Program-made: the position numbers and the translations under genes
Part shown: positions 15,906 through 59,769 of the stretch, in pieces
Layout: each line of letters begins with the position of its first letter
Numbering within the stretch: the stretch's first letter is position 1
The notes under the pieces: model-generated
What the model saw: the letters and a program-made list of their open reading frames with translations, nothing else
What the model was told of the DNA's origin: nothing
The model's database searches: none
Source: Beroe forskalii
Lineage: Eukaryota; Ctenophora; Nuda; Beroida; Beroidae
Reading direction: 5' to 3'
NCBI GenBank assembly: GCA_011033025.1
Contig: WFMF01000546.1
Span: 46,816-110,815, forward strand
Length of the DNA stretch: 64,000 nucleotides

Positions 15906-18389
15906 CTGAGTTGTCCGTGTCAATTCTGTGCTATCTATGGCATTGGCAAGACTTATCTTTATTGAATAATGGAATTTTCTGAACCAATCTATGATAGACG
16001 CAGATTGAGATAGCAAATAATTTAAGAATCAGCAAGTTTTGCCATTGCCATTTTCAAGCTGATAAGTGCGATTACTTGGAAAATGGAAGCTTAAGTTTAT
16101 ACATTGAGAGCTGGGAAGTACATTAGTACTATAAAGGGTTAAAATTGTACATCCCAATCAGGAGTCAGGGTGCATGTGACTGCTGAGTGTCCCCAGTCAG
16201 ATCACATGACAAAGCAGAGGACACTCTCCCTCAACCAATGACCGACAGTGGTGCAAATCCCGGGGGGGATGGGGGGGATTTATCCCCCCCAAAAATTGAA
16301 GCCCATCCCCCCCAAAAATTTCAAATTCCATCCCCTCCAAAATTTCACAAAATATTTTCAATAGCCGAAATCCCTCATCATGTTATTTTCAAGATCAGAA
16401 AGTTATTATTGGATGTAATTCCCACTACACTGCGGTCTTTAACGCAATTTCTCGGGTGTTTATGTAAGTTCTTCATAGCATTACATGAAATGATATTCTG
16501 TTCTAATTGAGCTCACACAACCTCCGTTACAAAATACAAACCCACATCAGTGATCAAAGGCAACCATTGCAGATCATTATCCCTCGATGTTCCTTGATAT
16601 TGTTTATGTATGGCGGTGTTTATTGGTGATTGATTAGCTGGTATAATGGCAATCAGATATATTGAGTGACGATCCCATCTTGTTAAGTCATCAATTTAAC
16701 ATTTCGTCTCAAGTTGCAAGGTGCCTAATTATCAACAGTAGTTATAGAGTGTATAGGTGCTGGGTGTCGGGTGAAAGTGGCTTGAATAAACAATCAAATT
16801 CACTCAGACTACAGCTATTCTGTACTGTAGTTCGTAGATAAAAATACTGTTTTGCTAAACATCTTAACTTGAAACAGAATAACATCTTTGCGACATTTTG
16901 ATGTTAATTACCTACTGTTCAACTTTTTTAGTTTTTGCTACCGTTTGTCATTGTGCTTATTGCATGTGTATTGTAATCTTGTTGGACAGTAAATTCTGTG
17001 GCCCATGGCCCATGGGCCATGGGGTCTGCACCGCTTTCTTAAATTTCATAGTCCAGCCCACTGAATGCTGATTTTGACTAATTAGGTACTCGACATTACT
17101 TTTTATAACAGTACAGGTAGGGCAGTCTACTTTCTGACGTTTATTCACAACTCTACCAAATAATATTGTGCCCAAGGGCAACCTATGTAGCGACTCAATG
17201 AGAATTGAGACATTTAAGTGTGTACACTGTCATTTGTGACTGCCAATAAAGCAATAATTAGGAGTCGATTCAGTATTCACATCACCAATGTAGCAATGTC
17301 AACTGCCTATCTTTTGTGGTTAGTGATTACGTAATACTTAGCTCCTACCTAGCCCCATTCTTCCAATTGTTTTACTTTTGGTCCTTTGGTCTGAGTTAAT
17401 TGAAGTAATCATCCTTGCCACATTCATAACTTTCCCCAGTATTTCTTAGAGCTAAGATCAATTATCGTACGATTGTTGAATTTTAATTTGGGACAGTGTG
17501 ATTTCCAACTGTACCGTTTGCTTTTGGTGACTTTCATGATAATTCATAAGTAAATTTGAAATTAGCACTGCTAATTTCAAATGCCCTTGCCCCTTGGTGC
17601 CTGCAGCCTGTGTCTATCCTAAAATAGACTTTAGATTAACAATATTATGATTAATCAATTCATAATTATTAGTGAATTGTAGTGATGTCAGATGTAGCAA
17701 CTACAGCGCCGTCAGTAAACAGTAATCATGACATAATTGCTTTGTTGAATGTCAACTTGCGTACTTGTGCGTTACTGTGATTTGATTTTGATGTTAATCA
17801 ATTAGTTAATTATAGCAATTTTTCAGTTCACTTTGTGCCCTATATATCGTACAGAAGATAAACAATTTGGTTTAAAACTTTATATAGTTGCGAGATGCGA
17901 GTGGCCCTTACATTTAAGTCGATACATCTAACATTGCCATATATACGATCTTTAATACCAATTGCTCTATTGAGTATTGATGAACTCTTTTGGGTACACC
18001 TACTGAATTCTTTGTCTGAGTTATGACTAATGTGTAGAAGCACGGATTTATCATTCACATCGAGTGTGTTTATGTGACTCCTGCTACTACGTTATTTGCC
18101 TTGATAGTTGATCGGTACGTATTATGATCAACTGCACTGGATATCCTACAATTTGATTTCAAATTACTGAACGAAAACTTTAACTGTTAATAAGGTTTAT
18201 GTACCAATTATAGATTTGACCACTATGGTAGCATTCTTGCCATTATTATCGAACTATAGTAGGTATAAATCACAAATCTTCAATTCGAGTGGGAAATTTT
18301 ACGCTTAATCGTGTCAGTGTATTTAAATTGATTTTTGAATATACGGAAAAATTTAACTCTTAAATTCCAACTATAATTTAGATAACAGC
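15906..18389. other. Intergenic, no gene seen
   Basis: Contains cagtggtgcaaatcccgggg at 16246, which looks like the terminus of a hAT-type element and is followed by paired G-run/C-run blocks (16261-16340). I could not find the opposite terminus. A short palindrome, ggcccatggcccatgggcc, lies near 17000. Otherwise it is AT-rich sequence without supported exons. Confidence 0.4.
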
Positions 18390-20909
18390 ATGCCGAAGCG
18401 GCCACCCCCTGATCCCAAAGGAAAGTCGCGCTCTCGACTGCAGAAGAGGACTAAAGTTACTGATCTCAGGAGCTTCTTCGTCTCAGCACATGAAAGCTCT
18501 GTAGCAGTTAATCAGAACACAGACAGTGATGCATCTTCATGTTCACACACAGATGTTAGGTCACCACAGCGAGATTGTGACATAGAAACTCAATCTTCAG
18601 AATCCTCATCAGACGCATTGTTTGACCTTAATGTTCCTATAGTTGATTTAACATCTGACTCAGAAACTGATGACCCTGATGTGACCATAGTTGAAGACCT
18701 TACTATATCTGAATATGTTGATAACTCTGAGGATAATAGCTGCAGCCATCCAATACAGTCCGCAAATATTGAGTCACCTCATGCATCAGCAAAACCTCGG
18801 GGTACATCAGAAAAACCCCATCACCCAAGTGCATCTATAATCCCAGTGAAGACTACCAAATTTCAAAATATAAGGTTCCAGCAGAAATGGTTCCAAGATT
18901 ATCCTTGGCTCACCTATGATAGTTCAATTGGTGCAGTTTTATGCTTTGAATGCAGCCGAGCTCACGATATGGGAATAATGGACTTGGCTAAAAAAGCAGA
19001 GAGTGCCTTCATACAAACTGGATTCTGTAATTGGAAAAAAGCCAAGGAGAGGTTCAACTCCCATATGACATCTGACACCCATAAACATGCAATTTCAGTA
19101 TTGAAATCTCAGGAGGGAAAAAGTGTCAAAATACAACTTAATGCTGAGGAGGAAGCAAAGCAGTGTGAGAGAAGAAGGTGTCTACACAAGATAGTAAGGA
19201 GAATAAGGTTTTGCTTACGACAAGGACTAGCATTGCGGAGTAACCCAGACACAGAAGGTAACCTTTATCAGCTCCTTTCTGATGATGCAGATGATGATCC
19301 CGGTCTTGCTGCCTTTTTAAAACAGAACACTAGCTATACTTCTTGGCTTATACAGCAGGAATTTTGTGAAGATTTTTCACATGCTATCTTACGTACAATA
19401 GCTAAGAATATCCAAAAACATGTGCAGTTTGCATTGATAATGGATGGAACCCAAGATTTGACTGGTTGTGAACAGATCTCAATTTCTCTGCGACATGTAG
19501 ATGAAGATTTAAATGCACACGAAGATTTCATTGGACTATATTCTGTGGATTCAACTACTGGTTCAGAACTCGCTCGAGTGGCAAAAGATGTGGCAACAAG
19601 ACTGGGAATAGACATGAAAAATGCCAGAGCTCAGACTTATGATGGCGCAGCAAATATGCAAGGGAAGAACAACGGCTGTGGTGCATTGATTAAAAAGGAA
19701 TATCCTTTGGTTATGCGTTTTCACTGCCGTGCTCATGCAGCAAACCTCGTCATTCAAGCAGCATGTGAGGCGTCACCACTTGTGAACAATGCTCTGACAA
19801 CCCTCCAGGATCTTGCCAAATTTTATAAGAAGAGTGATAAAGTCAGAAAAGAGGTTCGAGCAGTTTGTAAAGAGTTGGAATATCCTGAGAGCAACCTAAA
19901 CTCTATACGACCACTTTGTCCAACCAGATGGCTATGTAGGCTTAAGCCTGTCCAGGCCACTGTGGATAATTATTCTCTCTTACTACAAGCATTCTCAAAA
20001 CTTGCTGTTTCTAAGGAACTGTCTGCTGAAGCCAAGTCTAAGGCACAGCGAATCTTAAAGAACTTGGCTGATGCTGAAACCTTTTTGGGGTTGAGTCTGG
20101 TATTGAAACCATTTGCATTGTTAGAACAATTCTCAATAACGCTTCAAAGTGAAAAGGTTGATTTCGATTCTGCTGAAGAATCTGTAAAGAAAGTTGATGA
20201 AATGATCAAGAAATACCGTGACTCAGATTTCAGCACACACTTTGAGAGTGCCAAAAGTTTGCCAGACAGATTTGCAGATATCATCATAAAACCATTGCGG
20301 CAACCACGACAGAAGCGAATACCATTGAGATATGGTGGTGGAAGTAGTGATGCATCTGCAGATATCGAACAGCACTACAGGATACAATTTTATCAGTTTA
20401 TTGATAAGATCACAGTTGAGATTAAAGACAGGTTCAGTTCTACTAGCTCTGATTCGGATCTGTCTCTCTACAACGAACTTGCCCAGATTTTCAAGACTGG
20501 TGTTATTCCTAAGTCAGTGAAATGCTACCCAGAAATAGACTTTGCCAAACTCTCTTCCCAGATAAAATCATTCCGAGAACATACGAAAACAGACTCTGTC
20601 CATTCTGCCAAGAAAGCTTATCAAGCAATGGAAAGCTTAGAAAGAGGCCTTTTCCCACAGGTATTTGTATTACTCAAGATTCTTCTGGTGTGCCCAATCA
20701 GTTCTACATCTTGTGAACGGTCCTTCTCAACCCTGAGAAGGTTGAAGACATGGCTTAGGAATAGGATGGGCCAGAAAAGATTGAACTATAATGCTGTTTG
20801 CTCAATCCATAAAGATATTCTAAAACAAATAGACATAAGTAAGATATTGCAGGATTTTATCAACAAGAACAGTAATAGGCGAAGTAAGTTTGGTTCTGCA
20901 CAGTCATAA
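18390..20909 (+). CDS. hAT-superfamily transposase-like protein (TTF/BED zinc finger, DUF4371-like, C-terminal dimerisation domain)
   Basis: One intact 839-aa ORF without introns. Residues 1-150 are Ser/Asp-rich and probably disordered. At about 165-232 is a TTF-type zinc finger: WFQDYPWLTYD, CFEC and the closing HMTSDTHKHA. The RNase H-like core follows, with an acidic residue in LIMDGTQDLTG (about 351) and another in AQTYDGAANMQG (about 417), then FHCRAHAANLVIQAA. The C-terminus has the hAT dimerisation signature, CPISSTSCERSFSTLRRLKT, at about 768-787. The length and order fit the zinc-finger MYM-type 1-like/hAT family, which includes active transposases and host proteins derived from them. 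I found no convincing terminal inverted repeats or 8-bp duplication around it. It may therefore be a domesticated gene, or an element whose ends have decayed. The absence of stops over 2.5 kb argues for recent activity or selection. Confidence 0.92.
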   Translation: MPKRPPPDPKGKSRSRLQKRTKVTDLRSFFVSAHESSVAVNQNTDSDASSCSHTDVRSPQRDCDIETQSSESSSDALFDLNVPIVDLTSDSETDDPDVTIVEDLTISEYVDNSEDNSCSHPIQSANIESPHASAKPRGTSEKPHHPSASIIPVKTTKFQNIRFQQKWFQDYPWLTYDSSIGAVLCFECSRAHDMGIMDLAKKAESAFIQTGFCNWKKAKERFNSHMTSDTHKHAISVLKSQEGKSVKIQLNAEEEAKQCERRRCLHKIVRRIRFCLRQGLALRSNPDTEGNLYQLLSDDADDDPGLAAFLKQNTSYTSWLIQQEFCEDFSHAILRTIAKNIQKHVQFALIMDGTQDLTGCEQISISLRHVDEDLNAHEDFIGLYSVDSTTGSELARVAKDVATRLGIDMKNARAQTYDGAANMQGKNNGCGALIKKEYPLVMRFHCRAHAANLVIQAACEASPLVNNALTTLQDLAKFYKKSDKVRKEVRAVCKELEYPESNLNSIRPLCPTRWLCRLKPVQATVDNYSLLLQAFSKLAVSKELSAEAKSKAQRILKNLADAETFLGLSLVLKPFALLEQFSITLQSEKVDFDSAEESVKKVDEMIKKYRDSDFSTHFESAKSLPDRFADIIIKPLRQPRQKRIPLRYGGGSSDASADIEQHYRIQFYQFIDKITVEIKDRFSSTSSDSDLSLYNELAQIFKTGVIPKSVKCYPEIDFAKLSSQIKSFREHTKTDSVHSAKKAYQAMESLERGLFPQVFVLLKILLVCPISSTSCERSFSTLRRLKTWLRNRMGQKRLNYNAVCSIHKDILKQIDISKILQDFINKNSNRRSKFGSAQS

Positions 20910-24418: not shown

Positions 24419-26129
24419 GGAAAAATGGTACCACAGGAACACAACGAAAATTAGCCTCCATTAACCTCCATGGAGGCTGAGTGGAGCCTGAGTGGAGGCT
24501 AAGTGGAGGCTATTTTCAAAAATTAGCCTCCATGAAGGCTAATGGATGCATGAGGCTAATTTTTGAAAAATAACCTTCACTGTGGAGGCTAATTAGCCTC
24601 CACTAGCCTCCATTAGCCTCCAATCAGCCTCCATGCAGGCTAAAATTTTGGTTTAGCGTCCACTAGCTTCGACTGAAGAATTAGCCTCCATTAGCCTCCA
24701 CGGAAACTGAAATATGTCATTTTTGTTCAGGCTAAAGCTTAAATATGGAGGCTAATGTAGGCTGAGTGGAGGCTGAGTGGAGCCTAAATCAACAGGTCCG
24801 TTGAGAGGATTTTAGGGGCTGGGTGATATCCCTACCAGGGCCTATTCTCTTTTCTACAATGTGCCATTTTTCATTCAGCTCTGGGTCTGGGGGCGGCAGT
24901 CCCCAGAAGCCAGACGTTCTGAGTAAATGAAATGACCGTCTCAATATGATAATCGAAAATATTTTGCTATCTTGGCAATTTGGGGCCTATCTGGGAAGCT
25001 TGGGCCGGCGACAGCTGTCACCATTATAAGGCCCCCTCTCGACGGCCCTGTAAATCAACGAGCATCCAAACGAAGACATTTCTCGCTGAAAATGGTGATT
25101 TATGTGCACTAATATGAAAAACTATATATAGCTTCAAACTTTCAGACAGCTCCAACTATCCTACACTCAGCCTCCACTAGGTCCCACGCAGCCTCCACAA
25201 GGCTCCATTAAGCCTCACTAGGCTCCACTCAGCCTCCACTAGGCTCCACTCAGCCTCCACTAGGCTCCACTCAGCCTCCACTAGACCACTAGGCTCCACT
25301 CAGCCTCCACTAGGCTGCACTCAGCCTCCACTAGGCTCCACTCAGCCTCCACTAGGCTCCACTAGACCCCACTAGGCTCCACTAGCCTCCATTAGACTCC
25401 ACTCAGCCTCCACTAGGCTCCACTCAGCCTCCACTAGGCTCCACTCAGCCTCCACTAGGCTCCACTCAGCCTCCGTGGTGGCTGAGTGGAGCCTAGTGGA
25501 GGCTAAGTGGAGCCTAGTGGAGGCTGAGTGAAGGCTAGTGGAGGCTGAGTGGAGCCTAGTGGAGGCTGAGTGGAGGCTGAGTGGAGGCTGAGTGGAGCCT
25601 AGTGGAGGCTGAGTGAGCCTAGTGGAGGCTGAGTGGAGCCTAACACTTGCTGGGTGAGAAACTTTGGTCTATGTTACAAAATGTGCTCTTTTTGTACAAA
25701 CATGACATAAATTTAATTTTTTGGAGGCTAGTAGGTATATTTTCTGTGTTTTTTGTGATTTAAGCCTCCATTTGGAGGCTATAGCCTCCACTAGCACTGT
25801 CAAAATAGCTTCCATAGAATCCAAAAAATGACTTCTTAAATTTCTGTGGAAGCTAATGGAGGCTAATTCTTCAGTGGAGGCTAAACCAAAATTTTAGCCT
25901 CCATGGAGGCTGAGTGGAGCTCAGTGGAGGCTAGTGGAGGCTAGTGGAGGCTAGTGGAGGCTAACTAGCCTCCATAGTGGAGGCTATTTTTCAAAAATTA
26001 GCCTCATGCCTCCGTGGAATTTTGAAATTAGCCTCCACTTAGCCTCCACTCAGCCTCCACTCAGCCTCCAGCCTCCATGGAGGCTAATGGAGCCTAATTT
26101 TGGTCATGTTCCTGTGGTACCATTTTGCC
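24419..26129. mobile_element. 1.7-kb fold-back element made of GCCTCCA arrays, 8-bp target duplication
   Basis: The left end, ggaaaaatggtaccacagga at 24419, mirrors the right end, tcctgtggtaccattttgcc, ending 26129. GATCAATG stands directly outside both ends (24411-24418 and 26130-26137), a perfect 8-bp duplication as made by hAT-type transposases. The interior consists largely of a ~21-bp unit (taggctccactcagcctccac). It runs in one direction from about 25150 to 25475 and in the reverse complement from about 25476 to 25640, with a symmetry centre at cctccgtggtggctgag (about 25471). Further cattagcctcca words appear near both ends. It is non-coding and could fold into very long hairpins. Confidence 0.88.
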
Positions 26130-30100: not shown

Positions 30101-33100
30101 ATTTTGCAATACGTTTTCCACCTGAAAACCTCTGCAAATCATATTAGCCACACGACTATCAACGTAGGCACTAGGCGGGAATAACCCGTGTATACCAATG
30201 AACTAATATTTCCCAGGAAGAACTGGAAGAGTTCGCACTGCGACCTGCGCCTCAGAACCGTGACATGAAATGCCGCATCACGCGCGACAAGAAGGGAATA
30301 GACCGGGGCATGTACCCCACCTACTACCTGCATCTGGAGAGAGAGGACCACAAGAAGGTGTTCTTACTGGCAGGGAGGAGGAGAAAGAAGAGCAGCACTA
30401 GCAACTACCTTATCAGGTACACTGAGCAGCACTAACAACTACCTTATCAGGTACACTGAGCAGCAGTAGCAACTACCTTATCAGGTACACTGAAGCACTA
30501 GCAACTACCTTATCAGGTATACTGAGCAGCACTAGCAACTAACTTATCAGGTATACTGAGCAGCACTAGCAACTAACTTATCAGGTACACTGAGCAGCAC
30601 TAGTAACTACCTTATCAGGTACACTGAGCAGCACTTGCAACTACCTTATCAGGTACACTGAGCAGCACTAGCAACTACCTTATCAGGTACACTGAGCAGC
30701 ACTAGCAACTACCTTATCAGGTACACTGAGCAGCACTAGCAACTACCTTATCAGGTACACTGAGCAGCACTAGCAACTACCTTATCAGGTACACTGAGCA
30801 GCACTAGCAACTACCTTATCAGGTACACTGAGCAGCACTAGCAACTACCTTATCAGGTACACTGAGCAGCACTAGCAACTACCTTATCAGGTACACTGAG
30901 CAGCACTAGCAACTACCTTATCAGGTACACTGAGCAGCACTAGCAACTACCTTATCAGGTACACTGAGCAGCACTAGCAACTACCTTATCAGGTACACTG
31001 AGCAGCACTAGTAACTACCTTATCAGGTACACTGAGCAGCACTAGCAACTACCTTATCAGGTACACTGAGCAGCACTAGCAAGTAGCAACTACCTTATCA
31101 GGTACACTGAGCAGCACTAGTAACTACCTTATCAGGTACACTGAGCAGCACTAGCAACTACCTTATCAGGACATCAGGTACACTGAGCAGCACTAGCAAC
31201 TACCTTATCAGGTACACTGAGCAGCACTAGCAACTACCTTATCAAGTTCACTGAGCAGCACTAGAAACTACCTTATCAGGACATCAGGTACACTGAGCAG
31301 CACTAGTAACTACCTTATCAGGTACACTGAGCAGCACTAGCAACTACCTTATCAGGTACACTGAGCAGCACTAGCAACTACCTTATCAGGTACACTGATC
31401 AGCACTAGTAAATACCTTATCAGGTACACTGAGCAGCACTAGCAACTACCTTATCAGGTACACCTTATAGCACTAGCAACTACCTTATCAGGTACACTGA
31501 GCAGCACTAGCAAGTAGCAACTACCTTATCAGGTACACTGAGCAGCACTAGTAACTACCTTATCAGGTACACTGAGCAGCACTAGCAACTACCTTATCAG
31601 GACATCAGGTACACTGAGCAGCACTAGCAACTACCTTATCAGGTACACTGAGCAGCACTAGCAACTACCTTATCAGGTACACTGGGCAGCAATAGCAACT
31701 ACCTTATCAGGTACACTGAGCAACACTAGCAATTACTTTATCAGGTACACTAAGCAGCACTAGCAACTAACTTATCAGGTGCACTGAGCAGCACTAGTAA
31801 CTACCTTATCAGGTACACTGAGCAGCACTGGCAACTACCTTATCAGGTACACTGAGCAGCACTAGTAACTACCTTATCAGGTACACTGAGCAGCACTAGT
31901 AACTACCTTATTAGGTACACTGAGCAGCACTAGCAACTACCTTATCAGGTACACTGAGCAGCACTAGCAACTACCTTATCAGGTACACTGAGCAGCACTA
32001 GCAACTAACTTATCAGGTGCACTGAGCAGCACTAGCAACTACCTTATCAGGTACACTGAGCAGCACTAGCAACTAACTTATCAGGTGCACTGAGCAGCAC
32101 TAGCAACTAACTTATCAGGTATACTGAGCAGCACTAGCAACTACCTTATCAGGTACACTGAGCAGCACTAGTAACTACCTTATCAGGTACACTGAGCAAC
32201 ACTAGCAATTACTTTATCAGGTACACTGAGCAGCAATAGCAATTACTTTATCAGGTACACTGAGCAGCACTAGCAACTACCTTACAAGCTGAAGTTATGA
32301 GTTCCTAACTTGCTCCTCACTGTTTCGTGTGTAATGATTTTACCAAGACTAATGGCTGTTATTTCGATTCAAGATACTTTCTTTTATTTAGGTTGACATC
32401 AGCACGTTATATTAGCCAATTTTGAGGGTACTTGTAGGCGTGCAATAATAAGTAATATTGCACTCCTCACATTGGCTAATACACTAAGAGCATGGCAAAT
32501 GGTCATGACGCTAATAAATTATTGCACTCGGCTTCGACAATTTGGTATTGTCGCACTCGGCCTGCTCCTCGTGCGACAATACAAATTATTGCACTCGGCT
32601 ACGCCTCGTGCAATAATTTCTATTAGCGCATTCCCAGCCATGCTCTAAGCGTATAATAGCAACCCTCTGTATCGTGTTGGAACACGGCATATTAAATATT
32701 CACGTTTTCCCACAGTGCGGACCCAACCGACCTATCACGGGACGGAGAGAGTTACGTGGGTAAAGTCAGGAGTAATCTGGTCGGAACTAAATTTACCATA
32801 TTCGGAGCCGGAACGAACCCCATCAAACCCCCCAAACCAGAAGCAGAACTTCTCTACCGGGAGGTAAGGTCATACCTGGCTACTCATACTTGGGGAATGG
32901 TTGGTAATGTATTGATGGGGTGTTTCATTGGTGGATTGACATATGACTGGCTGGTGAAGTCCTGTACCTGGTAATGTGGTAGGTACCTTAGCATAGCAGG
33001 AAGCTGTAAATAGTACGTACATGACCATGGTTGGCACCTGTGCTTATTGCTTAATAGGCACCTGGCGCATACGTACAGTCGTACACTTTTGATTTTATTT

Positions 33101-36100
33101 CCAATGGTTTCATACCTTATTATGGAAGTATGGAATACCTTTTGGTATACAGTCTCACAGAATAATCCAGGTTCGAGCACTGTAAATCTGACTTTTTAGC
33201 ACGGGTGAGAGATAAATGTAATTATTTTCGGAATTGGTGATATGGAGTAGTTGAATATTGAATATTCGTGATAAAGGGTTTAAATTCCACAGACAACCAC
33301 GACTATTGAGCCATTGTTGCGAGGAAGCTTTGTAAACTACAACCGTAACCGTATGTATTTAAACTTTTAAATACCTCCCCTTGATCCCGGCTCATAATGC
33401 CATTTTTGGCATATATCACAGTTTACTTTACTCCCAGTGGTTCCGATTTGCCGTGATGTGTAGCAAGTGAAAGTTACGCAATTTACATTATATTATCTGA
33501 GTATTTGAGTAACTAATCGGGCTCCTGTGTTGTCTGGGTGGTAAAATTCTGGCTCCTGTATCGTCTCGCAGCCTGATTAAGGCGAGTGGTGATAAGTACC
33601 ATGGTGACGTCGGTTATTAATTGGTCGATTAAGTAGTTACTTTTCTCACACAATAATGATGAATAAAATAATACCTACTATTATATTACACTATCTATTC
33701 ACCTTCAGAAGAAAGCTTCAATTGCTTGGGGGTATAGGTAATCGAGTGCTTCCTTTTTGAATAATGTGGCCCCTGTGCTGGCGCCTGGCAGTACACATGA
33801 AGCTACTAGTATTATTCCTGCTCAATGAATGTTAGGATAATGTCCAGTGGCTCCTGTGCGGGCAGTCATGTCACCCATCTCTCTACATCCTCTTGCATGA
33901 GAGATGCCCGGACCTCTCACTTTACTATATTATAAGGTTCCCTCAGTTTTCGCATGCATATTATGCATACTTATGCATACTTATATTCTGCTCACCCTAT
34001 AATATAACTATAGGACATCATTTCGATGCATATTGTGCATATTGAACTCGGCTTCTCCTCGTACAATATGCACTAATATGCATCTCAATGCTGTCCTATA
34101 GTTATATATTACATATCCACGTACAAAGTATTGCAACATTTCAGAAGAATGAGTGGATGAATGAATCCTCCGCAAGACACGTCTTGCGGAGGATTCATTC
34201 ATCCACTCATTCTTCTGAAACTCTATGTTTTTAGATTGAAATGTTGCAATGCTATGTCTTGCAAATTAATGTAATCAAATTTGAGCCCTGATAATGTCGC
34301 TGAGTGATGAAATTAAACCGAGCAGACATTTCTTATGCATCACAATTTGAGAATTAATGAACCTTTTCTCAATACATCAATAGTAACAATCTGATTATAT
34401 ACGGTCCTGTATCTCTAACAGCTTCAATAGAGATTAGAGATGATTGCACATTTGGATCAATCAAATTAGGGGTTCGAAGAAGGCACTTGATTGAAATTAT
34501 CAGTGCCAAGAAGCCAGCGAGTAACGCTGTACATGCATGCGCCCTTGAAAGCATTTCTGTTGTTTCAAGTGCGCATAATGCCATCATTTGATAAATTCCA
34601 CGATTTCTATATTCCTTAATTTCATCGAATGTGTTTTATTTAGTGAACTTAAATTAGGTAGAAAGTACCACAAACTTGAGCCTTGAAACATTTCCTGCAA
34701 TGGCTACAGTGCTAGTACTATCGCATGTACAGTAATCAGTGTTTAGGTGGGTGAAAGTACCAAAATGTTAGTACCTAAAGTGTTATAGTAGCAAACCTGT
34801 TGCCCTGGTAACAGGTGTATCACATTGTGTACTGAATCTGTCAATTCTTAGTGTATTGCTAGTACATGATGTAGGTATTGTATTGTATTGTATTGTAGGT
34901 TCCCCAAACTCGGAAGTAAGGGGGACAGTACCCTTAAGGGCACTGCCAGCACTGGGGCCACGGGACACCACTTATAGCGACGGCAAGTTGCCACTGGTAC
35001 CCACTGGGTGCTCTGGCTTTATTGGGAACAGCATTTCAGTGACATTGGCTTGGTGAACTTCACTGAGCAATGGGGGTCAGGTGTTAGGCCAGACAAGCCG
35101 CCTTTACTGCTGCACACTACAGTTTGAGTCAACTATATCTCTGTCCAAAGCACAGAAAAATAGATTTACTCTCTCTGTCCACATTGCCATGGGTCGGTCA
35201 AAAAGTCATAAAGGTAAGTGTAGTTTTGAAGGCGTGAGCTGGGTTGCCTTCGGTAACATAAGTGTATTTAAAAAGTGGTACGGATTTCATTTTGAGTGGT
35301 GATTATCGAAATGTCAGGACCCTCCTGCTCTCCTTCCATTATTTTCTTGAATCAGCTGGTGTATCGTCGTCTTTTATTATTATTACCTTGTGTAGGTGTG
35401 CTTCTACGTTTGTTAGTTTTGTGAGATAGTGTTCTGTTGGGGAAGGCTTCTTTTTTGTTATTTGTGGCTTTCTTTCAAAAATATTGGTGTTGTTGAAAAT
35501 TTTATCATTTTGTTGATTAGATGACTACTTTGCAGATCGTCAATGCTATCAAATTGGTATTTGTTGAATATTTCTTTTCTTTTATTGCTGAAATAAGAGC
35601 ATCTACACAGTATATGATGCGCTGTTTCTAGGCAGTTCTCTTCCCAGTTGTAGTCAACGTATTTCATTATTCTGTACAGTATTCACAGTGTTCATTATAA
35701 CTCTGTTTTGTTTTTGTCATGTGATAGTTTAGGTTGTTATGATTGGATAATATTTTAATTAAAGTACTTATTTTCTCATAGTTTAGTGTTAAGATTTTGT
35801 TTGTCATTTTATTTGTCCTGTATTTATAAGCTTTGACTAAACCAGATGTAAGTATCTTAGCCTCACAGCTTATATCACTATATATAAATCTGTTTTCTAT
35901 TGATCTATGGTAGTGTTTGTTAATGATATTAATAAATGTTGTGAATGGTGCTTTATTATATAGTGGATTTGATACTTGTTTTTAGGGAACCTTTCTTAGC
36001 AAGGTAGTCAGCTATTTCATTTCCTTCATGACCTTCGTGGCCAGGTATCCAGTTGAGATTGACTGTGTTATTTCCTCCCAGCCTCATTAAGTGAGTTATG

Positions 36101-39100
36101 GCACATTTTTATTAATTCATTTTTTTGTATGTTTGTTCATTAGAGACTTAAGTACTGCTTGTGAATCTGAGTAGAATTCGATATTTAAATTACTTAAGTT
36201 TTTTGTTTCGTATGATTTCGCTAGCTTTCCATATGGCAATTGCTTCTGCTTGGTAAATGCTGGTGTGTGTTGGGGAGTGGTTCTGCTACCTCATTTATTT
36301 CTTCTTCACTGAATGTTATACCGATTCCTGTGTTGCCTTTTTCATTTTTTGACCCATCTGTGAAGATTAGAAGGTTTGATTCACATTCTTTCACTTGTAT
36401 ACTGTCCCTGTTTTCAATGTTGATTTTGTATGTTTTGTTTAAGATTGAGAAAGGACTAATTTTGTCTGAAATTGGGTTTGGTTCAATTTTTATCACAGGT
36501 TTTAATTTCCAATCAATTATTTCTTGTGTTGATTGTATTTTTTCATTTTTATAGTTATTCATGTTCCAGTGTCTTTCAGTCTTGAGAGTTAATGTTCTTT
36601 TAAAGCTGTTTCTTCTAATTTTAACCAATTGTTTATTAAGGAGTAAATTTAGGAGTATTTTGGGAGTGCTAATTTTACACCTTGTTATCATATGTTGCCA
36701 TAGTTTGTATAGGAGTTATTTTTAGCTATTTGTGATTTTGTTAGGTTCATTGCCCAAACAATAGATCCATAACTTATAATCGGTATGATGATTGTCTTGT
36801 ATATCCAGAGCATTTGTTGTGAGATATTCCCATTTGCTACCTATTGCCCTTTTTGTGGCAAAGAGCCTTTTACTCTTTTGACTACATTCTCGATGTGATC
36901 ATTCCATTTTAGTTTATTATCAATTGTTATTCCTAAGTATTTTTACTGTTTTTGATATCTCAATTTTGTGACCATCAAGTTTGATTGATTTTGGGTGTTT
37001 ATTTTCCCTGGTTGTAGACCAGAAAATTACTTTTTGTTTTAAGTGTGCTGATTTCTAGTGAGTTTTAGTTTACACCATTTCATTATTTTTCTCAACCATG
37101 TTTTTTGTGTTTATTTTTATTCCATATATATATATCTTTCCCAGTACTGAGTAAGAGATTACTTTTAGAGGATTAGTAATCTGATACAGTATTATTTATT
37201 TTTTTTTTAATTTTGTAAATATACTTGTATATCATTTAAACTAATTAAGGTTAATTAATTAATTATTTCTTGATTAATTAATTATATTCTTATGCATATT
37301 TGTACTAGTTATTTGTATATTTCTGTGTTTATCTTGACAATACTGTTTTCTACAATCAAATTTAAGTTATAATGATTCGTAGAGGATTGTACAGATTCAA
37401 TTTATTCTATGTTTTTGAGTAGTGAAATTTAAAATTTTGGCAGAGCTTCCGCAGGGCAAAAGCCCTACTTCAAACTGTTGAACAAAATTCCCCAATATCA
37501 CTTGAATTTAGTGTGACAGATTGGGACCTCACTGGTAGATCTGGAGGATTTTTAGTTCTCATCCGGCTGAAAGCACAAAGAACTATTGACTTTAAGAGAA
37601 AAGACTAATGGCTGATACAGCGCTAGTCTGTTAGGTTGCACATTGTTCTTATATAAGAGCATAAGTTGGCAGCCTACTTGTTGCTTGGTCTTAACGCACC
37701 ATCGCTGTAGTATTAGCAAGCTAATCTACAGACTACGGCCCTCGGGAGCAGCAACGAAGCTCCGTTCCAGGGAATCTCACCGATGTTCTGATTTAACGGT
37801 ATGGTGCCCGAATCATCAGAACCTGGACATGATGTAGGTACTAAGTGCAACAGTACTGATTTATAGTGTGTAACCGATGAATAATTGTAACTTTGTAAGA
37901 TCGTTTAGGTCGTAAGTCTAAGTGTAAGTGATACTCTGAATCAGCCATTTGATGCTAATGACACACCAGTGCTCCATTATTACCAGTTGCCTATAATATG
38001 ATATGTTCCTGCTTACTTTTTGGCTACTGCACTGCCGTCATAATTATTGCTTGCTCAAATACACTGAGCTCAGTCCTCTTTCAAACATTTTAGTGACATT
38101 TCAAAATTCACGATTCTTCGGACTTAATTAAACTAAAAACTAAAAAGTTAAGAAGCAATTTGATAGCTATTGTCCCGGAGAGCCGAGAGGAATGGGAATT
38201 GTTCCCATCCACAGTCCCCCGGCACACTGAGACACTGCCCAGAACCTCTCGCAGATCTGTCCGTCTATTAGTAGTAGATTACTATTAGATTGTTGCGATG
38301 ACTCGCTGCTGATGTGTTATGTTAACCGCTCATGTAATGTAGGGCATTGCTAGTTGCTACTAAAATGTTCGAAACACGCACCCAATCTTAAAATCAGTTT
38401 GGTAACTAAAAACATGTATATTGCGCAGTGTCCTTCCCGCAGAATCTATCTACTTAATTGGCCCTTTTCTAAGTGACCTTGAGAACAAAAAAGGCTTGAT
38501 TCTTTGTCCAGAGGGTAGTTTAAAAGAAACCAATTAAAATGGGGCCGGTTAAATTAAAGGACAATATTTAATTGAGGTCAGATGAAACATTTATTACTTG
38601 GCTTATATTGTGTTTGATTTACTTGAACTTTATTAGTCATTAAGTCATTACATACTTACATAACACAGATAATTAGCTAAATCATGAGATTAGGCCGATT
38701 ATACCAATTGATGCAATTTATCGAATATCGAACATAGATGAGTTTTATTGTTTGTTTCATAGAGTCATAGCATAAAATCCTTGATCTGGTAACTGCTTGA
38801 ATCGTCCTTGTTGATCAGGTATCTTACCTCCTACCTCCTTCAGGAGTTAGCAGCAGTGGTGTACAGCACGAATGTCCTGGGTTTCAAAGGCCCCCGCAAG
38901 ATGACAGTACTCATTCCGGGCATGACGGGAAACAGAGAACGGGTGGAGATCAGACCGGAGTCAGAACATGTGAGTTATTTCCCGGGTAATCACACTATTG
39001 TCTGACGCTGACACTTGTCCGCAATTTATGGAAATTCCTTCAAATTTTGGGGAAGTTATTTGTACTGGAGCTATTAATAAGCTTTGTATTCGTAGGACAC

Positions 39101-42100
39101 GGACATAACTGTACGAAGTCACACATACACAGTGTGTATGTGCGAAAGTTCTCTCTGAATGATCTATGAAGATAGACACATCCTAAGACTTAGAGTCTAA
39201 GATTCTATCTTCATAGATCATTCAGAGAGAACTTTTGGATTGTTGTCTGCTTCCAAATTCCAATCTATTGTTATTATCATTTCGTGGAAAAAGTTAGTGC
39301 TTTGATTCCATGCTATCTTACCAGCAGAACAAACTAATAAAGTAATGAATTAGAATGTCCGGCTCGCGGTCTGTGCTCCTATACTGACTAACCTATAATC
39401 CGTGTACTACGTGAGCCACTTAATACATTCCACTAAACAACACCGTATTGTGTGGTGTTACTTACACTACTGTCTACTGCACAGTACCTTCATTATTACT
39501 CCTTGTAATGCACTATAATGCTGCTGTAGTGCGTGAGTTGGGTACAGGGATGGGAGAATCTGGGGGTTTACAGAATCTGGGAGTTTACAGAATCTGGGAG
39601 TTTACAGAATCTGGGGGTTTACAGAATCTGGGAGTTTACAGAATCTGGGGGTTTACAGAATCTGGGAGTTTACAGAATCTGGGAGTTTACAGAATCTGGG
39701 AGTTTACAGAATCTGGGAGTTTACAGAATCTGGGAGTTTACAGAATCTGGGGGTTTACAGAATCTGGGAGTTTACAGAATCTGGGAGTTTACAGAATCTG
39801 GGAGTTTACAGAATCTGGGGGTTTACAGAATCTGGGGGTTTACAGAATCTGGGAGTTTACAGAATCTGGGGGTTTACAGAATCTGGGGGTTTACAGAATC
39901 TGGGAGTTTACAGAATCTGGGAGTTTACAGAATCTGGGAGTTTACAGAATCTGGGGTTTACAGAATCTGGGAGTTTACAGAATCTGGGGGGTTTACAGAA
40001 TCTGGGAGTTTACAGAATCTGGGAGTTTACAGAATCTGGGAGTTTACAGAATCTGGGGGTTTACAGAATCTGGGAGTTTACAGAATCTGGGGGTTTACAG
40101 AATCTGGGAGTTTACAGAATCTGGGGGTTTACAGAATCTGGGAGTTTACAGAATCTGGGGGTTTACAGAATCTGGGGGTTTACAGAATCTGGGAGTTTAC
40201 AGAATCTGGGAGTTTACAGAATCTGGGAGTTTACAGAATCTGGGGGTTTACAGAATCTGGGGGTTTACAGAATCTGGGAGTTTACAGAATCTGGGAGTTT
40301 ACAGAATCTGGGGTTTACAGAATCTGGGAGTTTACAGAATCTGGGGTTTACAGAATCTGGGAGTTTACAGAATCTGGGAGTTTACAGAATCTGGGAGTTT
40401 ACAGAATCTGGGGTTTACAGAATCTGGGGGTTTACAGAATCTGGGGGTTTACAGAATCTGGGAGTTTACAGAATCTGGGGTTTACAGAATCTGGGGTTTA
40501 CAGAATCTGGGAGTTTACAGAATCTGGGGGTTTACAGAATCTGGGAGTTTACAGAATCTGGGGGTTTACAGAATCTGGGAGTTTACAGAATCTGGGGTTT
40601 ACAGAATCTGGGGTTTACAGAATCTGGGAGTTTACAGAATCTGGGGGTTTACAGAATCTGGGGGTTTACAGAATCTGGGAGTTTACAGAATCTGGGAGTT
40701 TACAGAATCTGGGAGTTTACAGAATCTGGGAGTTTACAAAATCTGGGGGTTTACAGAATCTGGGGGTTTACAGCGATGAAAATATTGATAAGTGACGCCT
40801 TATTAATATCAATTATTTCTGCTTTTATGTATTATGCAAACATCCAAAAAGATTGCAGAGTGCACCGTTTCAGAACTGGTTTGGAGTAGGTATATCCTAT
40901 TTATCTGATTGTCTTTCAGCATTCTATTCAGAGAGTTAGACCGGTAATATAAGTCTCACTATCTGAGTATGTTACTATCTTAGTATCTAAACTGTATCTA
41001 AGACGAGTCTATCATTTCAGCATTCCATATTGGAGCGATATAAGCGCGGTGAGGTGGCTAACCTATTGGAGCTCCACAACAAGACACCAGTGTGGAACGA
41101 CGAAACACAGAGCTACGTTCTCAACTTCCACGGCCGCGTCACACAGGTATTACTATAGTCACTTGATCTATGGAAATGAGATTGTACTATGATGTTTTCA
41201 TATCATTTTATTCCAGATGTGCTGAGGTGACTGCCAAAATTGTGATGTAAGTTATCCCATAATGTTACAGAAGACGAATTTGAGAATAATTTTTAGGTGG
41301 TCACACATGTAAGATTATTTACCTGTAATCTATAGTACTCAAGAGATAATATTGTTATATACATTATACATGCACACCACCTTTTTCTTTGAATCAACTT
41401 TTGCCACAACGATATTATATATTGGCCCTATATTAAGACGCATAAATTATAAAAGTCGAATTAATAATATGCGGTTGATGTTGTAGATTTGTCCTACACC
41501 ATTCTTTTATGTTTCGAGCCTACTATTATAGTACCTATTATGGTTCGAAACTATTGTGTTTCGAACCTAGATAAATTTCTATAATTACATAAATTTCTGA
41601 CAAATATAATAAATCTCTGAAAAATATAATTTTCACTTGTCAGATAAAGAAACAAATTGTAACTACCATAATATTGGGTCGTATGAAAGTTCAGTAGGGG
41701 ATCAGCAGAGGGTCAGCAGGGGGTCAGTAGGGGGTAATTGGTATGCTTTCATACGACCTAATATTGTCTTGGCTCAACGATTGAATTGCTATGCAGTATG
41801 CATTTCTTTTATTCAGAGTGCGCATTCAAGGTGCCTCATCGGACATGACCTAGTTAGCCGGACATAACTTAGGCACCGGAAGCCCAAAATTATACGATTA
41901 TGTCTAACCAAATTATGTGAACATTCATTTCGTTACAGCTCGATTGTTTTTGATTGAGCTCAAAATCTTTCAAAGTTGACATTTCCTCCAAGCACCCATA
42001 ATCATGTCCGCCTACAATTTTGTCTATTAATTTGATGGGGTAACGACAAGTGAATATTATGTGAATATATTCAACACGCTTTACCAAATATTTTTTCCTG

Positions 42101-43565
42101 AAAATTATTAGAAAAGTTAAGAATCGAGAGATCGTACTGGACTTTGTGTTTTGATAGAATTGTAATGCACTGTAGGTTTGTTTATTCAAGTCTTTGTAAC
42201 CATGGAAACAAGTAAAAGCAATATATCCATGCAGTCCGAACATTGAAAGTATGTTACGTCACTCAATGATTCTTTAATCAATCTTTACATCTCCACTTAA
42301 CTTCTGCCTGATAGCAAGTAGAGATAACGTGTTTGTGACGCGTCCGTGTAAAGTAGCGATGTGTGTTGCGTCTTATCATGCATTAATTCTACATTAACCA
42401 TCATATATCCATCATGTAACAGAATATAATATAGAATACAATGTCATGCATCAGCCGTGGAGTACAGTGTAGTTTTACAATCGGCTCCAGCAGAAGCTGC
42501 GTGTCTGGGAATTGGGTGTGTTCGTATGACTCATAGATCTCGTAGGAGCTGTCTGGGAATTGGGTGTGTTCGTGTGAGTCATGGACTTCGTAGGAGCTGT
42601 CTGGTAATTGGGTGTGTTCGTGTGACTCATGGACCTCGTAGGAGCTGTCTAAGAAATGGGTGTGTTCGTGTGAGTCATGGACCTCGTAGGAACTGTCCGG
42701 GAATTGGGTGTGTTCGTGTGAGTCATGGACCTCGTAATAAGAGCTGTCTGAGAAATGAATCTGTTCGTGTAAGAAATGGACCTCGTAGGAGCTGTCTGGG
42801 AATTGGGTGTGTTCGTGTGACTCATGGACCTCGTAATAAGAGCTGTCTGAGAAATGAATCTGTTCGTGTGACTCATGGACCTCGTAGGAGCTGTCTGGGA
42901 ATTGGGTGTGTTCGTGTGAGTCATGGACCTCGTAGGAGCTGTCTGGGAATTGGGTGTGTTCGTGTGACTCATGGACCTCGTAGGAGCTTCTGCTTCTGCA
43001 GCATTCTATCTTTCTATCATTACAATGCTTTTATACGTGACTAATTGATGCTATCGAATGGCCCAATACAGTAATGTACCTACTGCAAATGTAGTTCCAG
43101 CGCGCCGTCTGCAATATAACTTGAATATAACGAAATGATTGATAGAAGGGGGTAAAAGGTGACGAAATGTTTCATATAGAGCAACTACAGCTTACTGAGT
43201 TACTGATATGATGAAAAATATGATGATCCATAGATCTAAGTTATTTAATCACTCATAAACATAAATTATTGCCTGATTGGGTGATTGAAAGCATAATCAA
43301 TCAACCATCTGTCCATCTAGTCCGGGGATTATTGCTCATTTTTCAGATGTGGCATATGCTGACCGTACACGTAATCCATCGCTCGTTTCAGGCGTCAGTA
43401 AAGAATTTCCAGATAATTCACGACAACGACCCGGACTACATCGTCATGCAGTTCGGCCGGGTGTCCGAAGAGGTCTTCACCATGGATTTCAAGTACCCGC
43501 TCTGTGCGCTCCAAGCCTTCGCCATAGCTCTCTCATCCTTCGATGGGAAGATAGCGTGCGAGTGA
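27119..43565 (+). CDS. TUB: Tubby-like protein (TUB/TULP family), eight exons
   Basis: Exons: 27119-27256, 27568-27862, 28229-28329, 30217-30416, 32716-32863, 38844-38969, 41021-41146, 43392-43565. All are GT-AG and in phase, 1308 bp, 435 aa; vertebrate members are about 440-560 aa. Residues 1-46 hold the N-terminal helix ([20 protein letters not shown]) that in TULP3 contacts the IFT-A complex. Residues ~47-178 are Ser/Pro-rich linker. The tubby domain runs from about 180 to the end: [21 protein letters not shown], then [16 protein letters not shown] with the basic residues that bind PI(4,5)P2, LLGTKFT-like [53 protein letters not shown]. The family signatures [15 protein letters not shown] (split between exons 7 and 8) and [10 protein letters not shown] end the protein. 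Known role: phosphoinositide-dependent adaptor that brings membrane proteins to cilia. Exon 4's donor lies inside a minisatellite. The exon 1 donor (GTTAGT) is the weakest call. No lesions are seen; exact orthology within TUB/TULP is not decided. Confidence 0.96.
28330..30216 (+). other. Tubby-like gene intron 3
   Basis: AT-rich intron with no recognised element. The donor is aagg|gtacga and the acceptor tttcccag|gaaga. Confidence 0.6.
30391..32283 (+). repeat. 34-bp minisatellite (~55 copies) that contains the exon 4 splice donor
   Basis: The unit is agcagcactagcaactacct then tatcaggtacactg. The first copy is the last 26 bp of Tubby exon 4 plus the first 8 bp of the intron. Every following unit therefore repeats the coding end, the CAG|GTACAC donor and the start of the intron. 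Most units differ by 0-3 bases; a few carry extra pieces such as aagtagc or acatcagg. It ends at cttacaagctgaag. Reading on from exon 4 past the first donor gives a stop codon within the next unit (TAA or TAG after GAGCAGCAC). Confidence 0.96.
32408..32649. mobile_element. Two adjacent fold-back elements in Tubby intron 4
   Basis: 32408-32482 is a small hairpin: tattagccaattttgagg against cctcacattggctaata. 32484-32649 is a second one with ends ctaagagcatggc/gccatgctctaag, then gctaataaattattgcac against gtgcaataatttctattagc. The centre holds actcggcttcgacaa and actcggctacgcctcgtgc words. Both are non-coding, and both lie before the exon 5 acceptor at 32715. Confidence 0.75.
32864..34002 (+). 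other. Start of Tubby-like gene intron 5
   Basis: AT-rich intron sequence. From about 33935, ggttccctcagttttcgcat and gcatattatgcatac introduce the fold-back element at 34003; the same lead-in is seen at 56830. Confidence 0.5.
34003..34106. mobile_element. 104-bp fold-back element with ACTCGGCTTCTCCTCGT core, copy 1
   Basis: tataactataggacatcatt at the left mirrors gctgtcctatagttata at the right, and gcatattgtgcatattg faces caatatgcactaatatgc. The loop carries aactcggcttctcctcgtac. A sister copy with a nearly identical stem and loop is at 56906-57009. Confidence 0.75.
34139..34220. repeat. Perfect 40-bp-arm palindrome
   Basis: The arms 34139-34178 and 34181-34220 are exact reverse complements with only AC between them: tttcagaagaatgagtggat ... 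and the mirror ending ctcattcttctgaaa. The outer word ttgcaacattt (34131-34141) recurs inverted at about 34239-34249 after a gap. No coding content. Confidence 0.95.
34221..35369 (+). other. Tubby-like gene intron 5, unremarkable part
   Basis: Contains a short tattg pentanucleotide run at 34877-34896 (ttgtattgtattgtattgta). Nothing else was recognised. Confidence 0.4.
35370..37060 (-). mobile_element. 5'-truncated, decayed non-LTR retrotransposon (RT end, RNase H, zinc knuckle)
   Basis: On the minus strand, in order: the end of a reverse transcriptase ([10 protein letters not shown] then [16 protein letters not shown], 36890-37000); the ORF 36221-36691 with the RNase H opening [20 protein letters not shown]; the RNase H segment [20 protein letters not shown] near 36010-36070; and the C-terminal zf-RVT-like [19 protein letters not shown] in 35458-35667. 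The 3' end runs into a TAA repeat (taataataataa, 35373-35386), a tail style known from I-type elements. Several frame breaks mean it is dead. It sits antisense in Tubby intron 5. The clade (I/R1/Outcast-like) is a guess from the RNase H plus zinc-knuckle layout. Confidence 0.82.
37061..38843 (+). other. Tubby-like gene intron 5, distal part
   Basis: AT-rich sequence with ttaattaattaattatttcttgattaattaatta at 37253-37287. At 38455-38585, gtttaaaagaaaccaattaa and ggccggttaaattaaagg resemble the aactggccc words of the MITE at 13097-13779. No exon was recognised. Confidence 0.4.
39145..39235. repeat. Hairpin with perfect 32-bp arms
   Basis: 39145-39176 (aaagttctctctgaatgatc...) is the exact reverse complement of 39204-39235. 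The 27-bp loop contains cttagagtctaag, itself palindromic. It lies in Tubby intron 6, 176 bp after exon 6. Confidence 0.92.
39556..40776 (+). repeat. 17-bp G-rich minisatellite (~72 copies) in Tubby intron 6
   Basis: The unit is gaatctgggagtttaca (17 bp), with 16-bp (ctggggttt) and 18-bp (ctggggggttt) variants and G/A alternation in gggag/ggggg. The plus-strand unit has no stop in any frame, so two overlapping ORFs of over 400 codons run through it. They are artefacts of the period. The array stops 244 bp before exon 7. Confidence 0.95.
41670..41765. mobile_element. 96-bp hairpin element in Tubby intron 7
   Basis: aatattgggtcgtatgaaag at 41670-41689 faces ctttcatacgacctaatatt at 41746-41765 (one mismatch). 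The loop is a short repeat of ggtcagcaggg/ggtcagtaggg. Confidence 0.7.
42475..42995 (+). repeat. 48-bp minisatellite (~10 copies) in Tubby intron 7
   Basis: The unit is gagctgtctgggaattgggt then gtgttcgtgtgactcatgga and cctcgtag. Two copies are 51 bp through an added taa in cctcgtaataagagc. The period is a multiple of three, so both strands show long ORFs (195 and 107 codons). The context is intronic, and I do not call a protein. The flanks also mirror each other loosely (ccagcagaagctg against gagcttctgcttctgcag). Confidence 0.9.
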
Positions 43566-58882: not shown

Positions 58883-59769
58883 CCGTGACGGGTTTGAGAA
58901 CGTTATGGGCGCCAGTCAGGATCTGCGCAGAATTTTGTGCTGATCATTATGCTTTTTTCCCCGAGTTCCAAATCCGATGTTTAAGCCTTTCAAATCGCAC
59001 TTAAAGTTTGCTTAAAAATGGTCACGTGATAGGCAACTCCCTGGCTTAATATTGAATTAAGGGTATCAATATATATTGGATAATTGCGTTACTCGCCATT
59101 TTGGCAACCATCACCACAACACCCAATCAGACGCTGAACGTGGAAGTCAATTGGGAAGAGGAACGCGCCATGTCTCATGATTGAGTTATCGGCTGTCTAA
59201 CTGTGAGCGCAGCGTTTGCTAACAATAACAATTATCGGAAAGGAGATAATCGCTCTATAATAATAGGCGGTTGTCTATGACATCATTATCATGGTTGAAA
59301 ATGGCATGTATACGATATTAAGCCGCCGATTGTCCTTCTCGGACTAACGGATCGTATCCGTGTTTGTGTGTGGGTCAATGTATTATGTAACATATCCACA
59401 TTGTGTGTAACACCACATAATATCATCACGATCACATTGCTCCAGCATCAAGCTATGAGATCAGAGATACGACGTGATCAGCGCATACGGAATTTTACCG
59501 TATACTTGAAAACTTCAGGGCTCAGGAAATTGAAAACATCGTCAGTAAATCACAATAACCTTGTTGGTTGTAATAGGTTATAAAATTAAATGGCGAAACT
59601 TACTAACTTACTAAAATAAATACGTACTTACTAACCCACGTTATGATATTGATATACTTACAGTATAAAAATTACATAATGAAAATTACAATGATGATTA
59701 GAATCAATAAATTAGTAAATTTTCTCATAGTTTCTGTATTAGGAACCTTATAGTTATATCAGTCAACAA
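58883..59769. other. Intergenic, no gene seen
   Basis: Unique-looking sequence. The ORF at 59368-59583 has no domain. This is the 3' flank of the minus-strand gene ending at 59857 or 59770. Confidence 0.4.

What the first reader, a model, noticed from the sequence alone, without database searches (positions are those of the whole stretch)
30391..32283. A 34-bp minisatellite that copies a Tubby exon's splice donor about 55 times
Seen: the array's first unit is the last 26 bp of exon 4 plus the first 8 bp of intron 4, and nearly every later unit keeps CAG|GTACAC. Only the first donor keeps the reading frame. Using any later one meets a stop codon within the next unit. Inference: the spliceosome faces dozens of nearly identical competing donors, so expression may depend on a rule such as preference for the exon-proximal site, and array length could vary between individuals and change output. 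The duplicated segment encodes the PIP2-contacting part of the tubby domain. An exon-intron junction amplified in place like this is unusual.
Basis: partly seen in the sequence, partly recalled or inferred. Interest (0 to 1): 0.85.

Follow-up and report, generated by a model that had tools for sequence, protein, structure and literature searches.

The report
Splice-site minisatellite in a Tubby gene
A short stretch spanning the end of one exon and the start of the next intron in an animal Tubby gene has been copied head-to-tail about 55 times, giving the splicing machinery 53 near-identical start signals of which only the first makes a working protein; similar arrays sit at several kinesin exon ends in the same genome, and a human gene (ABCA7) suggests that the first signal can win such a contest.

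Summary
Window 30390-32284 is a 34-bp minisatellite of 55 units (last one partial). Unit 1 is the last 26 bp of exon 4 plus 8 bp of intron 4 of an intact Tubby domain; 53 of 55 units carry AGGT. Of 53 AGGT donors only donor 1 keeps the frame; the other 52 meet the same stop. Position or upstream context must choose donor 1: 20 later units are letter-identical to it, and predicted RNA structure does not single it out.

Two results move the case. First, it is not unique here: 7 arrays in 6 of 90 sampled kinesin exon records span an exon-intron junction, on donor and acceptor sides; uniform placement predicts 1.64 (P 0.00065; by contig 5 of 29 against 1.57, P 0.011). The excess lies in the first 30 records (6 against 0.68), not the other 60 (1 against 0.97). 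Second, a human precedent: the ABCA7 intron-18 VNTR has a donor GT in its unit; retention of one unit is about 2% whatever the array length (PMC5954066).

Best reading: tandem duplication hit a splice junction, and exon definition by the innermost site pair made the extra copies tolerable decoys. No RNA data were available.

The parts
30390..32284 (+). 34-bp minisatellite, 55 units (54.7 copies), 53 with AGGT
   Evidence: TRF; unit decomposition; single locus in the genome
30217..30416 (+). Tubby exon 4 (Tub domain start); its last 26 bp form the exonic part of unit 1
   Evidence: Pfam Tub match; translation; PDB alignment; boundaries
30391..30424 (+). unit 1: 26 bp exon 4 + 8 bp intron 4, the only frame-keeping donor (GT at 30417)
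   Evidence: frame test over 53 donors
30361..30390 (+). purine-rich exon stretch (22 of 30 purines) directly upstream of unit 1 and absent from the repeat; candidate enhancer, untested
30433..30435 (+). TAA in unit 2, met in frame by every later donor tested
   Evidence: codon 73 from 30217
30417..32715 (+). intron 4 (2299 bp), of which 1868 bp are array; acceptor CCCACAG lies 431 bp beyond the array
   Evidence: sequence; boundaries
32716..32863 (+). Tubby exon 5 (ADPTDLSR...; carries the GKVR motif)
38844..38969 (+). Tubby exon 6
41021..41146 (+). Tubby exon 7
43392..43565 (+). Tubby exon 8 with stop codon

Best explanation
A DNA-level tandem duplication of 34 bp straddled the exon 4/intron 4 junction and then grew to 55 units by ordinary minisatellite turnover (inferred). 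It was tolerated because splicing takes the innermost site pair around the exon body: donor 1, next to the unique part of exon 4 and its upstream acceptor, is used, and the 52 downstream donors are decoys removed with the intron (inferred; shown is that only donor 1 is compatible with the protein). The choosing information must lie more than 26 nt upstream of the junction or in the order of transcription, because 20 later units equal unit 1 letter for letter (shown). The same rule would cover acceptor-side arrays elsewhere in this genome, where the last-transcribed copy is the one next to the exon body. That favours exon definition over a pure first-come rule. A small leak to donor 2 and later, destroyed by nonsense-mediated decay, is expected.
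For: Intact Tub domain with correct exon joins. Frame test, 1 of 53 AGGT donors viable. Unit 1 letter-identical to 20 other units (21 of 55 in all); 24 of 55 units have the exact exonic 26 bp; a block of units 21-24 is repeated at 33-36, as in ordinary minisatellite growth. Same-genome junction arrays on donors (L026, L031, L041) and acceptors (L022, L027, L041, L131; L019 probable); L041 has arrays at both ends of one exon. In donor arrays every later copy read gives a stop: L026 1 of 1, L031 8 of 8, L041 18 of 18; the L022 acceptor array, 24 of 24. The kinesin paralogues C164 and C897 each carry an array at an exon where the other shows a single copy in the stretch held, so arrays look younger than the introns and dispensable. 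Human ABCA7: about 2% of the measured isoforms keep one repeat unit, not changed by array length, and these are NMD targets (PMC5954066, one section read). Nascent donors stay tethered to Pol II by U1 in human cells (PMC8316553, abstract).
Against: No transcript data of any kind. The donor is weak at +4 to +6 (duplex energy with the U1 end -7.1 against -11.6 for the consensus), which does not help donor 1 to win. The abstract of PMC5585400 reports that SRSF1 bound just upstream of two competing donors suppresses the intron-distal (first) one in hundreds of human genes, which goes against an enhancer favouring donor 1 (one section heading of that paper in the same call reads the other way; I did not read the section). 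Not all wrong copies are excluded by frame: 6 of 6 upstream acceptors in the stretch of L131, 7 of 14 in L041 and 1 of 25 in L027 would give open in-frame insertions. Splicing rules are carried over from human cells to an unnamed animal. In ABCA7 only retention of a single unit was reported, so wider leakage there is not excluded by what I read.
Confidence: 0.68

Rival explanations
1. The array is a length-dependent brake: decoy donors and intron length cause leakage to PTC transcripts or skipping of neighbouring exons, so array length tunes Tubby output and varies between individuals.
For: All 52 later AGGT donors give a PTC. In human ABCA7 VNTR length is associated with lower expression (section heading) and raised exon 19 skipping (PMC5954066). 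Non-productive sites can be used to lower output in yeast (PMC3983031, abstract).
Against: In ABCA7 retention of a unit did not depend on array length. No length variation could be seen in a single assembly. Nothing found here points to conservation or regulation.
Confidence: 0.22
2. Units work as recursive splice sites: each has AG|GT, so splicing from donor 1 to a later unit regenerates the same donor and removes whole units without a scar before the last step to exon 5.
For: AG|GT is in 53 of 55 units; recursive sites are juxtaposed acceptors and donors (abstract start of PMC8605326 in the listing). Any such step yields the same mRNA.
Against: No strong pyrimidine tract is seen before the unit AG by eye (not scored). 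The model fails for the acceptor array L022, whose unit has no GT right after the AG. Nothing but sequence supports it.
Confidence: 0.07
3. The array length or its position is an assembly artefact.
For: Ten successive identical units (9-18) could have been mis-sized; read data are not available.
Against: Variants and a duplicated block are placed consistently. Units carry 23 distinct sequences. Several other arrays of 1-3 kb are assembled in this genome.
Confidence: 0.03

Closest known systems
ABCA7 intron 18 VNTR, human (PMC5954066; passages and one section read)
   Same: Minisatellite (25 bp, 23.7 copies in the reference) starting at the exon's own donor, with a donor GT in the unit; the first donor is the canonical one; use of the next donor retains one unit and shifts the frame.
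   Different: The ABCA7 unit is described as lying in the intron from the GT on. Here the unit includes 26 coding bases, so exon end and donor are copied together; the array has more copies than the human reference, and the same genome has comparable arrays at acceptors.
Intron gain by tandem duplication of an AGGT segment (Rogers model; potato RdRp, ATP2A1, a 24-bp fission-yeast case; PMC4974935 abstract and introduction read)
   Same: A short AGGT-containing exonic stretch duplicated in tandem, leaving the peptide unchanged.
   Different: There the new intron runs between copies. Here the intron uses an acceptor 431 bp beyond the array, and in the kinesin paralogue pair the introns look older than the arrays.
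Internal tandem repeats at exon-intron boundaries of human segmental-duplication genes (PMC2812944; passages read, part of the abstract among them)
   Same: Tandem repeats at exon-intron boundaries altering splicing in many genes of one genome.
   Different: Those vary between recent paralogues and form novel introns or exon repeats; the passages I read do not describe dozens of copies of a single donor or acceptor.
Recursive splicing ratchet points (PMC8605326, listing only)
   Same: Juxtaposed AG and GT.
   Different: No evidence of stepwise removal; tandem rather than single sites.

Membership tests
Minisatellite / VNTR | Head-to-tail array of 10-100 bp units with high identity | tested here: met
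   34 bp x 54.7, 91% matches
Minisatellite / VNTR | Copy-number variation between individuals | not testable with these tools
   one assembly, no reads
Splice-donor VNTR of the ABCA7 type | Donor GT inside the repeat unit, first copy being the exon's own donor | tested here: met
Splice-donor VNTR of the ABCA7 type | Array begins at the GT, outside the coding sequence | tested here: not met
   unit 1 holds 26 exonic bases
Splice-donor VNTR of the ABCA7 type | Minor retention of one unit; exon skipping rising with length | not testable with these tools
   no RNA data
Intron gain by tandem AGGT duplication | Duplicated exonic segment with AGGT | tested here: met
   53 of 55 units carry AGGT; the GT itself is intronic
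Intron gain by tandem AGGT duplication | New intron bounded by two copies of the duplicated segment | tested here: not met
   acceptor at 32715 lies 431 bp outside the array and gives the correct protein
Recursive splicing ratchet point | Juxtaposed AG|GT | tested here: met
   53 of 55 units
Recursive splicing ratchet point | Pyrimidine tract and branch site before the AG | not tested
   looked at by eye only
Recursive splicing ratchet point | Stepwise splicing products | not testable with these tools
   no RNA data
Tubby family (host gene) | Tub domain PF01167, intact reading frame over exons 4-8 | tested here: met
   5 of 5 matches are above cut-off and lie in this gene, one of them read past the exon end into the TAA of unit 2; joined frame open

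The most novel reading that the evidence does not exclude
In this animal's genome exon-intron junctions, donors and acceptors alike, are preferred seeds of minisatellites. A process acting at junctions (for example damage or template switching during co-transcriptional splicing), or protection of such arrays by selection, builds introns largely out of copies of the neighbouring exon's end. The genome is then a natural experiment in exon definition, with up to dozens of equal splice sites per exon.
Probability: 0.2. Interest if true: 0.8.

Novelty: new variant of a known kind. Interest (0 to 1): 0.52.

Why it matters
How the spliceosome picks one of several equal donors is an old question, usually studied with a few engineered copies (recalled). 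Here nature supplies 53 near-equal donors, and on other exons tens of near-equal acceptors, with a clear readout: only the first copy keeps the Tubby frame. If junction arrays prove to be over-represented genome-wide, they would also be a direct route by which introns grow from exon sequence.

Tried and rejected
RNA structure hiding the later donors: rejected. Local folding gives donor 1 rank 12 of 53 for accessibility, all near zero.

Splice-site strength: rejected as the discriminator, since donor 1 equals most copies. Against the U1 end the array donor (-7.1) is weaker than this gene's exon 5 donor (-10.1) and similar to exon 7 (-7.2).

Enhancer upstream of unit 1: kept only as a possibility. 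The stretch is purine-rich, but the abstract of PMC5585400 reports the opposite effect for SRSF1 placed upstream of competing donors.

GC-driven seeding as the reason for the excess at exons: partly fits. Other arrays have mean GC 0.435 (n=33) against 0.389 in flanks and 0.484 in exon matches; the eight arrays then taken as junction arrays range from 0.36 to 0.65. Not decisive.

L019 was first counted as an eighth junction array (8 arrays, null mean 1.65, P 0.00025; by contig 5 against 1.57, P 0.012). Its exon start, placed from the frame, lies 26 bp beyond the repeat called by TRF, with one more degenerate copy of the junction there. I dropped it from the count and reran the test. One search, an earlier run, had 7 arrays (with L019, without L026), null mean 1.64, P 0.0009. 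L041's acceptor unit holds only 5 exonic bases, exactly at the threshold.

Candidates looked at and not counted: L032, L043, L076 (arrays starting in the intron after the donor), L080 (ends just before the exon, without exon sequence), L083 (17 bp x 2, exon end unclear), L084 (degenerate, ambiguous), L040 and L121 (intronic), L117 (same array as L031).

Kinase control: of 18 arrays in 30 Pkinase loci (30 of 135 matches; most of the 30 match the whole domain in one open frame), 1 overlaps the match, a two-copy repeat at a C-terminus (L054).

Sister species: no animal genomes are held. An exact 35-base pattern had 0 hits in viral contigs, as expected. The genome-contig scan was not used, because it holds bacteria and archaea.

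Papers: searches for a described junction-minisatellite phenomenon (43, 45 and 18 on neighbouring topics) listed nothing that I recognised as a genome-wide case beyond the works cited; I saw listings, not all papers. Passages on an earthworm metallothionein intron minisatellite (PMC12783039) do not describe copied splice sites. One search was a malformed query.

Full report
What is there. Window 30390-32284 holds a 34-bp minisatellite of 54.7 copies. A wrap-around decomposition gives 55 units, the last one partial, with 23 distinct sequences; 53 of 55 carry AGGT, and the commonest sequence (21 units) is also that of unit 1. Unit 1 is the last 26 bp of exon 4 plus the first 8 bp of intron 4 of a Tubby gene. 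The gene is intact over exons 4-8: all five Tub-domain matches found in the genome lie in it, and the joined exons give an open frame. An eye-made join of the same exons (one residue off) aligns nearly end to end with Tubby chains of the PDB. The array sits at a single place in the 216-Mb assembly (all 12 exact hits fall in it).

Frame. Joining each of the 53 AGGT donors to exon 5, donor 1 alone reads through; all 52 others stop at the same codon, TAA at 30433-30435 in unit 2. Unit 25 also keeps a GT (CAA|GTTCAC), which was not in that test but lies beyond the same stop. The PIP2 remark is mostly not: the unit encodes SSTSNYLIS, while the tested residues K330 and R332 (PMC10445746, passages) map to exon 5 and the second site 301-305 maps just upstream. 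The mapping assumes that the 1c8z chain starts at residue 241.

What must decide. Twenty later units equal unit 1 letter for letter, so the 26 bases upstream of their GT are the same. Whatever selects donor 1 must read sequence more than 26 nt upstream (exon body, upstream acceptor, enhancers) or the order of transcription. RNA structure does not help: donor 1 ranks 12 of 53 in predicted accessibility.

Not unique in this genome. I took kinesin-domain exon matches as a gene-family sample: 90 of 120 matches, on 29 contigs. Tandem repeats were called at score 80 or more and period 15-200. Seven arrays, in 6 of the 90 records, overlap an exon end by at least 5 bp and by no more than about one unit. 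On the acceptor side they are L022 (56 bp; 39 copies by pattern search), L027 (58 bp; 36 copies), L131 (39 bp; 10 copies) and L041 (30 bp, with only 5 exonic bases). On the donor side they are L031 (36 bp, 9-10 copies, filling most of a 311-bp intron), L041 (45 bp) and L026 (43 bp, two copies). L041 thus has arrays at both ends of one exon. An eighth, L019 (acceptor side), is probable but fails the strict test.

How strong is the excess? With the same arrays placed at random, exon-destroying placements redrawn, the mean is 1.64 and 7 or more occur in 0.00065 of 20,000 runs. By contig it is 5 against 1.57, P 0.011. Against this: the excess is in the 30 best-scoring records (6 against 0.68). The other 60 show 1 against 0.97; they were read with only 250 bp of flank. 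Two of the seven arrays are on contig C897. The test was thought of after seeing the first cases. Exon ends were corrected by hand only in the seven records of interest and otherwise taken from domain matches. I regard recurrence as shown and enrichment as suggested. Thirty Pkinase loci, most of them matched in one open frame, gave 1 overlap among 18 arrays, a two-copy repeat at a C-terminus.

Age relative to introns. Kinesin paralogues on C164 and C897 share exon starts. The C897 copy has the acceptor array at the LSLVDLAGSERA exon, where the 3.2 kb held of C164 has one copy; C164 has it at the VFTPDTRGDQEH exon, where the 620 bp held of C897 have one copy (exon identities 162 of 196 and 97 of 116). 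The arrays therefore look younger than the introns, independent and dispensable. This argues against the Rogers type of intron gain for these cases and fits amplification of existing junctions.

Mechanism. For donor arrays the first-transcribed copy is the one next to the exon body, for acceptor arrays the last-transcribed one. Frame tests on the copies held: the later donors all bring a stop in L026 (1 of 1), L031 (8 of 8) and L041 (18 of 18), and the upstream acceptors do so in L022 (24 of 24) and L019 (2 of 2). In L027, 24 of 25 upstream acceptors bring a stop and the nearest one would add an open 57-base insert. In L041, 7 of 14 stop and the other 7 are open and in frame. In L131, 6 of 6 are open and in frame (13 residues per unit). 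So the frame demands the innermost copy in Tubby and most of these arrays, not in all. A single rule, the innermost acceptor-donor pair around the unique exon body (exon definition), covers both sides; a pure first-come rule covers donors only. This is inference, as no RNA was available.

Comparison with the known. The nearest relative is the human ABCA7 intron-18 VNTR: 25-bp units beginning with the exon's donor GT, 23.7 copies in the reference, alleles up to about 427 (PMC5954066, passages). There retention of one unit was about 2% of the measured isoforms and did not depend on array length, while skipping of exon 19 rose with length; the PTC transcripts are NMD targets. The Tubby array differs in copying coding sequence together with the donor, and in having acceptor-side counterparts in the same genome. 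Human tandem repeats at exon-intron boundaries (PMC2812944, passages) and AGGT-duplication introns, including a 24-bp multiple duplication in fission yeast (PMC4974935, introduction), are the other neighbours.

Verdict. Observation confirmed; 'unusual' overstated; the contest among donors is real on the DNA level. I class it as a new variant of a known kind. Its larger interest is the recurrence of junction arrays in one genome, which deserves a whole-genome count.

Noticed in passing
window 39555-40773: 17-bp array, 72 copies, 96% matches, in Tubby intron 6; open frames of more than 420 codons run through it in all three forward frames.
   Followed up: no
window 25164-25474 and 25475-25642: Two adjoining minisatellites whose 21-bp units are close to reverse complements of each other, i.e. 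an inverted pair of arrays; a like unit also forms an array on another contig (L015 3129-3425).
   Followed up: partly
window 56392-56785 and 58628-58884: Two separate arrays of nearly the same 20-bp unit (GGCTCCCCATACTAACT...) about 2 kb apart, suggesting that minisatellite units disperse in this genome.
   Followed up: no
window 34140-34219: A perfect inverted repeat, two 39-bp arms with a 2-bp spacer.
   Followed up: partly
window 18357-20909: 850-codon open frame resembling a hAT-type (ZNF862-like) transposase; the likeness is recalled, not searched.
   Followed up: no
L131 1-275 and L041 1063-1509: Acceptor-side arrays with units of 39 and 30 bp; use of an upstream copy would add 13 residues per unit in L131 (6 of 6 copies open) and 10 per unit in L041 (7 of 14 open) to a kinesin motor domain.
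   Followed up: partly
L128 and L041 (C897) against L027 (C164): The two kinesin paralogues differ by an intron inside the P-loop motif (QTG|SGKT), present in C897 and absent in C164; in C897 that intron carries the 30-bp acceptor array.
   Followed up: partly
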